From: Anderseniella sp. | Lineage (GTDB): Bacteria > Pseudomonadota > Alphaproteobacteria > Rhizobiales > Aestuariivirgaceae | Length of the DNA stretch: 64,000 nt | NCBI GenBank assembly: GCA_030626025.1 | Contig: DAOUPT010000007.1 | Coordinates: forward strand, 24,158-88,157 | Reading direction: 5' to 3' | Shown: piece by piece, positions 13,018 to 25,294 of the stretch | How positions within the stretch are numbered: the stretch's first letter is position 1 | Layout of the letters: each line of letters begins with the position of its first letter | The notes under the pieces: generated by a model | Database searches by the model: none | Seen by the model: only the letters and a program-made list of their open reading frames with translations | What the model was told of the DNA's origin: nothing | Translations under genes and position numbers: made by a program

Positions 13018-13034
13018 CTGGCACGATTGTTGCT
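13018..13034 (+). promoter_or_regulatory. sigma-54 (RpoN) promoter
   Basis: CTGGCACGATTGTTGCT fits the -24/-12 consensus YTGGCACGrnnnTTGCW at every specified position. GG (13020-13021) and GC (13032-13033) are exactly ten bases apart. Transcription should start near 13045, about 55 bp before the GTG of the first gene. Sigma-54 promoters need an AAA+ activator, and the downstream gene set ends with one (22798-24174, intact GAFTGA loop), so an autoregulated unit is likely. Confidence 0.85.
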
Positions 13035-13100
13035 GACATAGTTAATGCCGGGTTTACCGGCGGAAACCGTAGAGCAAAATTAGTGCGGGAGAGCAGGGTT

Positions 13101-13400
13101 GTGAGGTTTAAGAGATTGTTCATTACGGCAACGGTGGTTTGTGTGTTGCCGGGTTCCGGGTTTTGTCAGGATTTATTTATTGCTGGCACAAGTCCGGAAA
13201 GGCGACCTGAAAATGCGCCGGTCATTTCCAAAGAAATAGATAAGAACGGTAACTGGTATGGCAAAGCGCTTACAGGCGTTGCCCAGCCCTATCCCTACAG
13301 TTTGCATTTCCTTGAAAATCAAGGGGGATGGTTCAATCCCTTTATCCATCCCGGTGCACCCGGGCCTTATGACATTCGCGGGTGGCACAAAGGCAAGTAA
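13101..13400 (+). CDS. small secreted protein of unknown function
   Basis: The first gene after the sigma-54 promoter encodes a 99-residue protein from GTG at 13101, chosen because GGAG lies 9 bp upstream; an in-frame GTG at 13083 would add six residues. The N-terminus MRFKRLFITATVVCVLPGSGF is a signal peptide with a basic start and hydrophobic core. The mature part is rich in Pro, Gly and aromatic residues, with stretches YPYSLHFLENQGGWFNPF and HPGAPGPYDIRGWH. The Cys at the end of the signal region does not fit a good lipobox. I do not recognise the family. Its position at the head of the operon and its export suggest a periplasmic or surface role together with the methionine-rich protein that follows. 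Confidence 0.7.
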   Translation: MRFKRLFITATVVCVLPGSGFCQDLFIAGTSPERRPENAPVISKEIDKNGNWYGKALTGVAQPYPYSLHFLENQGGWFNPFIHPGAPGPYDIRGWHKGK

Positions 13401-22801: not shown

Positions 22802-24174
22802 CTGCTAAACGTCGTGCCCGACGCATTCTTGTCGTAGAAGATGATTTAACCTTAAACCGACTGTTGCTTGATCAATTATCGCGGATTGGTTTTACGACAA
22901 AAGGCGTTACTTCGCGCCAGCAGGCTAAGGACGTCTTGGAAGATTTTGAACCCGATCTGACAATCCTCGATATGCGATTACCTGATGCTAATGGTCTGGA
23001 CTTCCTGCCTGATCTTCACAGTTGTTGTCCGGTTGTTATTCTGACCGCGTACGGGTCAATTGATCAAGCGGTAAAAGCTGTAAAAAGCGGGGCAGCAGAA
23101 TACCTGATCAAACCGGTTTCACCTGCAAGTCTGGAACTTGCCGTTACGCGGGCGCTAGAGAACGCCGAATTAAAGCGCAATGCTCAATTCTGGGAATCAA
23201 AAGTAAAATCGGAAACCGGTTCCAACATGATTGGCAGCGGGGCAGCTTTTGCTAAGGTGCGCGACATGATAGCTCTTGTGGCACCGGTCGAAACAACGGT
23301 TTTAATCGAGGGAGAAAGCGGCGTTGGCAAGGAACTTGTTGCAGGTGCCATCCACGAGCAAAGCACACGCGCTGACCAGCATTTTGTTGCAATAGACTGT
23401 TGTACCTTACAGGAAAATCTGTTTGAATCCGAGTTATTCGGCCATGAACGCGGTGCTTTTACCGGGGCTGACCGCAAGAAAGACGGGTTGATCGAAGTTG
23501 CCGAACACGGAACCGTTTTCCTTGATGAAATCGGGGAAATCAGCCCTGTTATTCAGGCTAAATTATTACGCGTACTGGAAACTGGAAAATATCGCCGCCT
23601 TGGCGGGGTAAAAGATATCTCTGCTAATGTCAGGTTTGTGGCCGCAACCAACCGTTCGCTGCAGGAAATGACCGAAGAGGGTAGTTTTCGCAGTGATCTT
23701 TTCTATCGGTTATCGGCATTTAATATTCAAGTGCCACCACTTAGAGAGCGCAAAGTGGACATCAAAAAACTTGCTATTCATTTTCTTGAATCACGAAACT
23801 TTCAACGAAACATCAAGAAGGTTTTAGCACCTGCAACGCTCAAGGCCCTGACCGCCTATCACTGGCCTGGAAATGTTCGAGAGCTGAAAAATGCAATCGA
23901 ACGCAGCATCCTTATTTCGGCCAATTCGCCACGCATTTTGCCCGAGCATATTTCACTGCCGAAAAACCCGGATGACTGCAAAGCATCCGTTGATTTGTCA
24001 TTTGATCACGAACCTACATTTGATGAAATTCGCGAAAATTATCTGATCCATTTGCTTGATGCTCATAACGGCAACAGGAAAGAAGTGGCGCAAATTCTGG
24101 GCGTGAGCGAACGCAACACCTACCGGCTGATTAAAAAACTGGAGCTAGACGGAAAAATTACATCCCCGGCTTAG
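22798..24174 (+). CDS. NtrC-family sigma-54-dependent response regulator
   Basis: A 458-residue response regulator and enhancer-binding protein. The receiver domain has the acidic pocket (EDD at 14-16) and phospho-acceptor D58 (ILDMRLPD). The AAA+ domain has Walker A GESGVGKE at about 172-179 and an intact GAFTGA loop at 219-224, which contacts sigma-54. A Fis-type helix-turn-helix closes the protein (NRKEVAQILGVSERNTYRLIKKL). Its start overlaps the kinase stop by ATGA, making a clear two-component pair. Because a perfect sigma-54 promoter lies at the head of this gene set, the simplest reading is positive autoregulation of the whole operon. Its 3' end overlaps the convergent msrAB gene by 17 bp. 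Confidence 0.93.
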   Translation: MTAKRRARRILVVEDDLTLNRLLLDQLSRIGFTTKGVTSRQQAKDVLEDFEPDLTILDMRLPDANGLDFLPDLHSCCPVVILTAYGSIDQAVKAVKSGAAEYLIKPVSPASLELAVTRALENAELKRNAQFWESKVKSETGSNMIGSGAAFAKVRDMIALVAPVETTVLIEGESGVGKELVAGAIHEQSTRADQHFVAIDCCTLQENLFESELFGHERGAFTGADRKKDGLIEVAEHGTVFLDEIGEISPVIQAKLLRVLETGKYRRLGGVKDISANVRFVAATNRSLQEMTEEGSFRSDLFYRLSAFNIQVPPLRERKVDIKKLAIHFLESRNFQRNIKKVLAPATLKALTAYHWPGNVRELKNAIERSILISANSPRILPEHISLPKNPDDCKASVDLSFDHEPTFDEIRENYLIHLLDAHNGNRKEVAQILGVSERNTYRLIKKLELDGKITSPA

Positions 24175-25294
24175 CAAAGGTTTTTGCATATTCGCTATAA
24201 CCTTTTTCTGCCAGCTCCTCGACCGGAATAAACCTCAGGGAAGCAGAATTCATACAATACCTTTTTCCTGTTGGTGCCGGTCCATCATTGAAAACATGGC
24301 CTAAATGCGAGTCGGCAATTGCGCTACGCACTTCCACCCGGCTCGTAAACAACTTCTTATCGATCTTTTTAACAATGCTGGAATTTCGAATTGGTCGGAT
24401 GAAGCTTGGCCAGCCAGTACCCGATTTATATTTATCCTTAGACGAAAACAGCGGTTCACCACTAACAATATCCACATAAATACCTTTGCGTTTTTCGTTC
24501 CAGTATTCATTCTTGTATGGTGCTTCGGTTCCCTCATGCTGGGTAACTTTGTACTGTAAGGGTGTCAGGCGTTTTTTGATTTCATCATCATCGGGTTTTG
24601 AAAACCGGCTGGCGACCGGGCGGTATTTGCTGTAATCAACCGCCAGTTCATCGCCCCACGAATCAACAACAAAGTCAGCCCGACCAGATCCACGAGTGTA
24701 TAGTTTGTAACGCACCGGATTTTTTTTGTAGTAATCCTGATGGTAGGTTTCCGCCGGATAAAAGGCGCTAAACTTTGTAATTTCAACTTTAATGGGCTTT
24801 TTAAAGGGCCCGTTGCTGACTAGATCAGCCCTGGACTTCTCTGCAATTTGTTTTTCGTTGTCATTACTGTAAAAAATTGTCGGACGGTATTGCTGGCCGC
24901 GGTCCTTGAACTGGCCACCATTATCAGTGGGGTCCATCATCCGCCAAAAGGCCGCTAAAAGGCCTTCATAGGTAATAACCTTGCTGTCATAATATACCTG
25001 CACAGCTTCGGTGTGGCCAGTAAGACCGTAGCCAACATCATGATAGGTGGGGTTTTTTTCTTTGCCACCGCTGTATCCTGAAATGGCAGTTTTAACTCCA
25101 GGAACCTTCTCAAACCCGGCTTCAACACACCAAAAACAACCCCCAGCAAAAGTCGCGACCTGATAGCCTGTAAGATCAGGGGCTGAAACATTGGCAAATT
25201 GCGGCTGCTCGTTGTCGCTCCACCAATAGAACCCCCCAAAAACAACTGCTATCAAAAAAGCGATCAAACCAATTTTTTTCATTACATGACCCAT
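24158..25294 (-). CDS. msrAB: membrane-anchored MsrA-MsrB fusion (peptide methionine sulfoxide reductase)
   Basis: A 378-residue bifunctional enzyme that reduces both S- and R-methionine sulfoxide in proteins. A hydrophobic segment at about residues 8-25 (KKIGLIAFLIAVVFGGFYWW) is a signal anchor, placing the enzyme in the periplasm. The MsrA catalytic motif is GCFWC with C53. The MsrB half follows at about 235-370, with GTGWPSF and the catalytic C347 in RYCMNS. The CxxC zinc ligands found in many MsrB proteins are absent. The start may be ATG 25294 or ATG 25282; neither has a strong ribosome site. It converges on the NtrC-type regulator of the methionine-rich operon with a 17-bp overlap. Repair of oxidised Met in the exported Gly-Met-X protein is an attractive inferred role. 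Confidence 0.92.
   Translation of the reverse strand: MGHVMKKIGLIAFLIAVVFGGFYWWSDNEQPQFANVSAPDLTGYQVATFAGGCFWCVEAGFEKVPGVKTAISGYSGGKEKNPTYHDVGYGLTGHTEAVQVYYDSKVITYEGLLAAFWRMMDPTDNGGQFKDRGQQYRPTIFYSNDNEKQIAEKSRADLVSNGPFKKPIKVEITKFSAFYPAETYHQDYYKKNPVRYKLYTRGSGRADFVVDSWGDELAVDYSKYRPVASRFSKPDDDEIKKRLTPLQYKVTQHEGTEAPYKNEYWNEKRKGIYVDIVSGEPLFSSKDKYKSGTGWPSFIRPIRNSSIVKKIDKKLFTSRVEVRSAIADSHLGHVFNDGPAPTGKRYCMNSASLRFIPVEELAEKGYSEYAKTFAKPGM

What the first reader, a model, noticed from the sequence alone, without database searches (positions are those of the whole stretch)
13018..25294. Candidate new sigma-54-controlled periplasmic redox module around a methionine polymer
One colinear gene set behind a perfect sigma-54 promoter encodes a secreted small protein, a Gly-Met-X repeat protein, a pentaheme cytochrome, a Tat-exported DmsA-like enzyme, its Fe-S subunit and chaperone, an odd polyferredoxin, and a haem-motif kinase with an NtrC-type regulator. 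A periplasmic MsrAB gene converges on it. Known precedent: MrpX/YedY1 in Azospira, where a methionine-rich periplasmic peptide scavenges hypochlorite and a methionine sulfoxide reductase regenerates it. I infer a related but differently built system: oxidant or metal buffering by the Met polymer coupled to respiratory reduction by the molybdoenzyme. The combination is not one I can name.
Basis: partly seen in the sequence, partly recalled or inferred. Interest (0 to 1): 0.93.

Follow-up and report, generated by a model that had tools for sequence, protein, structure and literature searches.

The report
Respiration-recharged methionine polymer gene module
Many unrelated bacteria carry, in nearly the same order, genes for a methionine-packed protein that is predicted to be exported, a cytochrome and a molybdenum enzyme that likely uses respiratory electrons to restore the protein's oxidised methionines, so the set would act as a rechargeable shield against oxidants.

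Summary
A perfect -24/-12 promoter precedes nine colinear genes: small secreted protein (P1), Gly-Met-X polymer, pentahaem cytochrome, DmsA-like enzyme, DmsB-like subunit, chaperone, polyferredoxin, haem-motif kinase and NtrC-type regulator.

It is a discrete, mobile, widespread module. Of the 80 best relatives kept (of 305), 72 have the Gly-Met-X array beside the enzyme; five others are contigs that end there, three lack it. In 299 sampled Pseudomonadota, enzymes at least 74% identical and long Gly-Met-X arrays occur in the same five genomes; other enzymes reach at most 43%.

I found a palindromic operator, CCTGACA-N3-TGTCAGG, near P1's start in 32 of 43 regions (about 1% in controls). The -24/-12 box follows the regulator's sigma-54 contact loop: 19 of 21 loci with it, 0 of 11 without.

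MsrAB is not conserved beside it (1 of 34 testable loci). Carriers tend to have nitrous-oxide reductase. In a clam symbiont the only DmsA-like gene lies here; a paper reports such a gene among the most highly expressed.

Best reading: the molybdoenzyme recycles methionine sulfoxide in a periplasmic polymer. Substrate inferred, not shown. No published description found.

The parts
12853..12869 (.). Operator 1, TCTGACA-AAA-TGTCATG (core 10/10), predicted regulator binding site
   Evidence: Motif CCTGACA-N3-TGTCAGG found de novo; near P1's start in 32 of 43 regions vs 1.0% of shuffles and 11 of 796 control windows
12920..12936 (.). Operator 2, ACTGCCA-TTT-TGTCATG (core 9/10), 67 bp from operator 1
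   Evidence: pairs of sites (8/10 or better) 61-69 bp apart recur (17 pairs in all)
13019..13034 (+). Sigma-54 -24/-12 promoter TGGCAC-N5-TTGCT
   Evidence: Sequence; box of 9/10 or better in 19 of 21 other loci whose regulator keeps the G[ASY]F[ST]GA loop, 0 of 11 without
13101..13400 (+). P1, small predicted-secreted protein of a conserved family (ORF open from 13083)
   Evidence: No Pfam or NCBIfam hit; recognised in 42 of 80 loci, many of the rest cut off upstream; 18 positions at least 95% conserved in 44 sequences
13511..14650 (+). GMX, predicted-exported Gly-Met-X polymer (379 aa, 97 Met), predicted mostly disordered
   Evidence: AlphaFold2 mean pLDDT 44.7; beyond the signal helix only a hairpin near residues 296-315 and the last residues score higher
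14729..15844 (+). Membrane-anchored (predicted) pentahaem cytochrome c, likely electron donor
   Evidence: Five CXXCH; N-terminal helix 2-36 then low-confidence linker; no NapC/TorC Pfam family among hits; no PDB fold match
15871..18411 (+). DmsA-like Mo-bisPGD enzyme with twin-Arg signal, own clade
   Evidence: Ser211 aligns with the Mo-ligand Ser of DMSO reductases; His71 stands where E. coli DmsA has the third Fe-S Cys
18432..19109 (+). DmsB-like Fe-S subunit
   Evidence: TIGR02951 196 bits, below its cut-off of 214.1
19096..19845 (+). TorD/NarJ-type chaperone
   Evidence: PF02613 69 bits
19851..20906 (+). Polyferredoxin without recognisable signal peptide (by eye); role unknown
   Evidence: 16 Cys at least 95% conserved in 55 sequences
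20903..22801 (+). Sensor histidine kinase with CXXCH in its sensor domain
   Evidence: PF21563 sensor, HAMP, PAS, HisKA, HATPase_c; CXXCH in 52 of 53
22798..24174 (+). NtrC-type sigma-54 activator with GAFTGA loop
   Evidence: PF00158, PF00072; strict GAFTGA in 31 of 52 orthologues incl. window
24158..25294 (-). MsrAB with hydrophobic N-terminus, convergent; lineage-specific neighbour, not core
   Evidence: PF01625, PF01641; same position only in L020

Best explanation
This is a conserved gene module with its own regulator and operator motif that is predicted to work as a respiration-driven methionine recycling system: an exported, likely disordered Gly-Met-X polymer would be oxidised to methionine sulfoxide by periplasmic oxidants, and the DmsA/B-like molybdoenzyme likely reduces it back with electrons that the pentahaem cytochrome would pass on. 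Shown by sequence: the gene set, its conservation and distribution, the Ser Mo ligand by alignment, the twin-Arg and haem motifs, the shared operator motif, and the match between regulator loop and promoter type. Inferred: export, binding of the regulator to the operator, Met oxidation in vivo, sulfoxide reduction by this enzyme, electron flow quinol to cytochrome to DmsB to DmsA (there is no DmsC anchor; a one-helix pentahaem cytochrome takes the place that TorC has beside TorA), chaperone-assisted Tat export, and the signal that the kinase senses (redox state, NO or O2). The association with nitrous-oxide and nitrate reductase genes suggests use by denitrifiers, where reactive nitrogen and oxygen species would meet the polymer.
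For: GMX array beside the enzyme in 72 of 80 loci, five of the other eight cut off by contig ends. In 299 Pseudomonadota, enzyme at 74% identity or more and arrays with 11 or more pattern matches occur in the same 5 genomes; the other 294 have 0-3 matches. 484 of 846 enzyme positions are at least 95% conserved in 82 sequences, fitting a constrained partner. Ser Mo ligand as in S/N-oxide reductases. Polymer predicted disordered: DorA reduces MetO in naturally unstructured beta-casein (PMC7402097, abstract and part of results read); BisA does both S/N-oxide respiration and MetO repair in casein (PMC10653797, abstract). Precedent for a Met-rich peptide plus a MetO reductase: mrpX/yedYZ (PMC4623255, passage). 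NosZ in 8 of 8 module-bearing vs 21 of 92 other genomes of a set of 100.
Against: L087 and L090 carry a full-length enzyme with no canonical GMX gene at the locus or among Gly-Met pattern matches elsewhere in the genome; L096 lacks it at the locus (its genome has an array on another contig). No enzyme of this clade has a known substrate. MsrP is above its cut-off in 7 of 8 module-bearing genomes, so ordinary periplasmic MetO repair is already covered. NosZ is missing in 11 of 49 module genomes searched (completeness not told) and in 1 of 5 in the phylum sample. The polyferredoxin has no role in this model. AlphaFold disorder for a low-complexity protein is weak evidence.
Confidence: 0.5

Rival explanations
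1. A dedicated anaerobic respiratory reductase for a small S- or N-oxide (or oxyanion); the Gly-Met-X protein is an accessory that protects or scaffolds the periplasmic complex.
For: Best family match is DMSO/selenate reductase. NosZ and NapA are enriched in carriers. The enzyme exists without GMX in L087 and L090. PMC6872982 suggests DMSO respiration for the symbiont gene (passage).
Against: Enzyme is below the TIGR02166 cut-off and in an isolated clade: outside it, sampled enzymes reach at most 43% identity, over part of the length. It does not explain why a Met polymer accompanies it in 72 of 80 loci.
Confidence: 0.27
2. The Gly-Met-X polymer is a soft-metal sponge, for instance for Cu(I) in denitrifiers that build copper NosZ, and the molybdoenzyme keeps its methionines reduced so that they can bind metal.
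For: Met-only ligands suit Cu(I) (established knowledge). NosZ association. Few His and Cys in most of the arrays.
Against: NosZ absent in 11 of 49 carriers searched. Among the gene clusters shared by four or more of the 80 loci none is a known copper gene (two of them have no Pfam family). The kinase carries a haem motif.
Confidence: 0.14
3. MrpX-like chlorine scavenging only: the oxidant is hypochlorite or another reactive chlorine species.
For: Functional analogy with mrpX/yedYZ (PMC4623255, passage).
Against: Different enzyme family and regulator; no chlorite dismutase among the gene clusters shared by four or more loci, though it was not searched for in the genomes.
Confidence: 0.07

Closest known systems
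MrpX / YedYZ (MsrPQ type) with SigF/NrsF, Azospira and perchlorate-reduction islands
   Same: Periplasmic Met-rich peptide paired with a MetO reductase (PMC4623255 passage; the primary paper is not held, the rest is recalled)
   Different: Enzyme is of the DMSO reductase family with an Fe-S subunit, not the YedY family; regular Gly-Met-X polymer; pentahaem cytochrome; sigma-54/NtrC and haem-motif kinase instead of SigF/NrsF
E. coli DmsABC / YnfEFGH
   Same: Catalytic A and Fe-S B subunits, TorD-type chaperone, Ser Mo ligand
   Different: No DmsC; extra pentahaem cytochrome, P1 and GMX; His in place of the third FS0 Cys; about 35% identity
TorCAD (recalled)
   Same: One-helix pentahaem cytochrome plus S/N-oxide reductase plus TorD chaperone
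   Different: The cytochrome hits no NapC/TorC Pfam family; there is an Fe-S subunit
DorA and BisA, DMSO-reductase-family enzymes that reduce protein-bound MetO
   Same: Same superfamily; reduction of MetO in proteins shown there (PMC7402097, PMC10653797)
   Different: In what I read, no dedicated Met polymer; general repair or respiration
SoxCD with SoxYZ (recalled)
   Same: Concept of a molybdenum enzyme acting on a protein-bound sulfur substrate
   Different: Oxidative direction, another enzyme family, cysteine-bound sulfane sulfur

Membership tests
DMSO reductase family (Mo-bisPGD) | Molybdopterin and dinucleotide-binding domains over cut-off | tested here: met
   PF00384 165 bits, PF01568 77 bits
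DmsA/YnfE subfamily (TIGR02166) | Score over curated cut-off 777.7 | tested here: not met
   628.7 bits; best-scoring model but below cut-off
DmsA/YnfE subfamily (TIGR02166) | Ser Mo ligand | tested here: met
   Ser211 aligns with DorA-type and E. coli DmsA Ser (which Ser is the ligand is recalled)
DmsA/YnfE subfamily (TIGR02166) | Four-Cys FS0 motif | tested here: not met
   C63-x3-C67-x3-H71...C110; H71 at least 95% conserved in 82 sequences
DmsABC complex | DmsC membrane anchor gene in the locus | tested here: not met
   No ORF left for it between the genes from 13083 to 24174
MrpX/YedYZ system | Periplasmic Met-rich protein beside a Mo MetO reductase | tested here: inconclusive
   Met-rich protein present; reductase activity untested
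MrpX/YedYZ system | YedY/MsrP-type enzyme in the locus | tested here: not met
   No such domain among hits of the ten proteins
NapC/NrfH/TorC cytochromes | NapC/NirT Pfam domain | tested here: not met
   Not among the seven Pfam families hit at E 0.01
Collagen-like proteins | Gly-X-Y repeats rich in Pro | tested here: not met
   PF01391 rings (123 bits) through Gly at every third place; the Gly-Met-X units contain no Pro (X is S, K, G or A)
NtrC-type sigma-54 activators | AAA+ domain with GAFTGA loop and receiver | tested here: met
   PF00158, PF00072; GAFTGA in the window protein
MetO reductases (function) | Reduction of protein-bound MetO | not testable with these tools
   Needs enzyme assay

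The most novel reading that the evidence does not exclude
The Gly-Met-X polymer is a periplasmic redox capacitor: oxidised while oxidant is present, then respired as a protein-bound terminal electron acceptor (methionine sulfoxide respiration) when other acceptors run out. It would be a rechargeable, cell-owned acceptor store for bacteria at oxic-anoxic interfaces, including animal symbionts.
Probability: 0.12. Interest if true: 0.95.

Novelty: new variant of a known kind. Interest (0 to 1): 0.82.

Why it matters
If right, proteobacteria in 80 genomes seen here, and likely hundreds, among them symbionts of clams and tubeworms, own a dedicated machine that turns respiratory electrons into methionine-based oxidant defence (or a stored electron acceptor). 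It gives a function to an enzyme clade now annotated as DMSO reductase, and would explain why a DMSO-reductase-like gene was among the most highly expressed in all five transcriptomes and six proteomes of the Loripes clam symbiont (PMC6872982, passage). It supplies markers (P1, Gly-Met-X array, His71 enzyme, operator) that make the question testable in culturable relatives.

Tried and rejected
MsrAB as a module member: rejected, 1 of 80 loci, 1 of 34 testable. Collagen-like adhesin (Pfam and NCBIfam Scl hits): rejected as a composition match. Strict dependence on denitrification: rejected, NosZ in 38 of 49 carriers, and in the phylum sample in 4 of 5 carriers vs 46 of 294 others. Replacement of MsrP: rejected. 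Fold of the cytochrome: no PDB match with E at most 0.001. Cytochrome against PDB by sequence: none at E 0.1. GMX fold: low confidence. Literature for a named system: searches found none; only open-licence papers are searched, and supplements were not available. Genome-wide regulon of the operator: not possible.

Rows dropped and limits: one search kept the best 80 of 305 relatives. One search scored only three candidates a genome and listed matches up to E 1e-80. In one search the cytochrome set of 86 includes six loci (L013, L014, L015, L016, L018, L019) from genomes that are also among L020-L099; sets were filtered by identity and length. The carriers counted overlap in part, so these counts are not independent. 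In one search, 49 of 50 genomes were searched (L048 not held) and the remaining 30 loci were not sent. The operator was found in 25 non-redundant regions of the same set; of the 11 regions without the loop only L024 was among them, and 9 of the other 10 have a site.
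Full report
Observation. ORFs at the stated coordinates encode P1, GMX, a five-CXXCH cytochrome, a DmsA-like enzyme with a twin-Arg motif, a DmsB-like subunit, a TorD/NarJ-type chaperone, a polyferredoxin, a kinase with a CXXCH in its sensor domain and an NtrC-type regulator. The Tat Pfam model scores below its cut-off. 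The -24/-12 box TGGCAC-N5-TTGCT is at 13019-13034. The GMX protein has 93 Gly-Met units; X is Ser 54, Lys 23, Gly 10, Ala 6, and the Ser codons belong to both Ser codon families, so selection acts on the protein. Genes are closely spaced or overlapping; co-transcription is inferred.

A discrete module. A scan of genome contigs found 305 relatives of the enzyme; the best 80 were kept, at 75-86% identity in Alpha-, Beta- and Gammaproteobacteria by record title. Where contigs are long enough, their neighbourhoods largely repeat the order P1 - GMX - cytochrome - DmsA - DmsB - chaperone - polyferredoxin, with kinase and regulator downstream, or upstream and divergent in many sulfur-oxidising Gammaproteobacteria; the polyferredoxin was not recognised in some. 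GMX arrays lie beside the cytochrome in 72 of 80 loci. Of the other eight, five (L044, L072, L084, L085, L089) are contigs that begin at or within the module, and L087, L090 and L096 have sequence there without the array. Eleven genomes were then searched for Gly-Met patterns (the eight, plus L028, L034 and L105) and 10 had some. In the genomes of L087 and L090 these were only short stretches: a GroEL-like tail, a small lipoprotein, and tails on substrate-binding-like proteins (recognised by eye). The genome of L096 has an array on another contig (L133).

Unbiased sample. In 299 Pseudomonadota the enzyme occurs at 74% identity or more in five genomes; other matches up to E 1e-80 have 43% identity over part of the length (one) or 37% and less. 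A six-unit Gly-Met-X pattern gives 11 or more matches in exactly these five genomes and 0-3 in the other 294. Related genomes are not independent, but the five come from five genera. A plasmid typed as conjugative, pEJ01 of Rhodobacter xanthinilyticus, carries the module, with P1 and a 244-aa GMX, some kilobases from insertion-sequence transposases, so it can be mobile.

Enzyme. It is a DMSO-reductase-family protein (628.7 bits to TIGR02166, cut-off 777.7). Ser211 aligns with the Mo-ligand Ser of solved DMSO reductases and of E. coli DmsA. The first Fe-S motif reads C-x3-C-x3-H-xn-C, with His where E. coli DmsA has Cys; this His is at least 95% conserved in 82 sequences, and 484 of 846 positions are conserved at that level. 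In the loci DmsA is 76-86% identical to the window's (a second copy in L064 70%) and DmsB 72-88%, while the cytochrome is 48-68%, the kinase 37-59% and the chaperone 33-56%.

Cytochrome and polymer. The cytochrome model has one N-terminal helix, a low-confidence linker and a helical haem domain, no PDB fold match and no NapC family domain among its Pfam hits. Of 86 sequences, six of them second copies of the same genomes, 64 have five CXXCH, 21 six and one four. GMX is predicted disordered apart from a hairpin (mean pLDDT 44.7).

Regulation. A search for shared dyads upstream of the promoter found CCTGACA-N3-TGTCAGG. With core score 9 of 10 or more it is near P1's start in 32 of 43 regions: 16 of 22 with the sigma-54 contact loop in the regulator (window included), 10 of 11 without, 6 of 10 with no regulator scored; controls were 1.0% of shuffles and 11 of 796 other windows. 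The motif was found in 25 regions of this same set; of the 11 without the loop only L024 was among them, and 9 of the other 10 have a site. The window has two copies 67 bp apart; the only other site of that score in the 64 kb is at 62104. In L081, where GMX comes before P1, two copies lie by the start of the GMX ORF instead; in eight Gammaproteobacteria loci another strong copy lies between the divergent kinase and the operon. The -24/-12 box scores 9 of 10 or more in 19 of 21 loci with the loop, 0 of 11 without and 6 of 10 undetermined. So regulator and promoter type change together; lineages without the loop seem to have changed sigma factor but kept the operator. In L087 and L090, without GMX, no site of 8 of 10 or more was found; L096 has two of 8 of 10.

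Where it lives. Among 100 genomes (the window's own and 99 relatives) the cytochrome is in 8; NosZ is in all 8 and in 21 of the other 92, NapA in 7 of 8 and 17 of 92, MsrP over cut-off in 7 of 8 and 74 of 100 overall. NosZ is in 38 of 49 module genomes searched and in 50 of 299 of the phylum sample, including 4 of its 5 carriers. Kinship, overlap of the sets and MAG gaps limit these counts.

Expression in print. PMC6872982 (passages read) reports that in the Loripes symbiont, Ca. [quoted passage not shown] L053 is a contig of that species; of its eight PF00384 genes only the module enzyme scores as DmsA/BisC-like at E 1e-100 or better. That the two are the same gene is a strong inference, not a look-up.

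Mechanism. Methionine in a disordered periplasmic polymer is a natural target of periplasmic oxidants, and DMSO-reductase-family enzymes can reduce protein-bound MetO: DorA (PMC7402097, abstract and part of results read) and BisA (PMC10653797, abstract). A review counts MsrA, MsrB, MsrP and DorA as able to do so, and says that BisC and TorZ/MtsZ are not and that DmsA has not been shown to (PMC8076862, passage); so family membership alone does not prove it. The mrpX/yedYZ cycle is the closest functional precedent (PMC4623255, passage). I therefore favour a dedicated MetO-recycling system fed by the respiratory chain. Against it stand two genomes with the enzyme but no canonical polymer, and the lack of any biochemical test. 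A small-acceptor reductase and a metal sponge remain open.

Novelty. I found no description of the set in the open-licence literature. It works like MrpX/YedYZ but is not a member: different enzyme family, polymer and regulation.

Noticed in passing
L140:7013-7846 (G397): A second, stand-alone GMX gene, followed about 650 bases downstream by a hemerythrin-domain protein; G270 and G441 also have arrays on both strands, so perhaps second genes.
   Followed up: partly
L144:7568-8926 (G392) and L182 (G393:C29:31000-34000): Substrate-binding-like proteins (by eye) with a C-terminal Gly-Met-rich tail, in the two genomes whose module lacks GMX.
   Followed up: partly
L124 (NZ_CP017782.1, plasmid pEJ01): The whole module, P1 and GMX included, sits on a plasmid typed as conjugative, with insertion-sequence transposases in the same stretch.
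   Followed up: partly
L064:16745-20219: A second cytochrome-DmsA-DmsB set next to the full module in a tubeworm symbiont (enzyme 70% identical).
   Followed up: no
L097:4746-5294 and L099 from 5350: Copies of a small secreted-looking protein family lie between the enzyme and its Fe-S subunit.
   Followed up: no
L050:6949-7731, L053:8340-9932, L047:5435-5824: Recurrent extra genes, mostly in Gammaproteobacteria: an unknown exported-looking protein (12 loci), a thioredoxin/NHL protein (16 loci) and a monohaem cytochrome c (13 loci).
   Followed up: partly
L042, L099: Record titles (Exiguobacterium, Dichelobacter) do not fit the module sequences, which resemble those of Rhodobacterales and Gammaproteobacteria; probably misnamed assemblies (my guess).
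   Followed up: no
L117 (G234): Nearest non-module enzyme seen by identity (43% over 371 aa), in a genome without Gly-Met-X matches.
   Followed up: no
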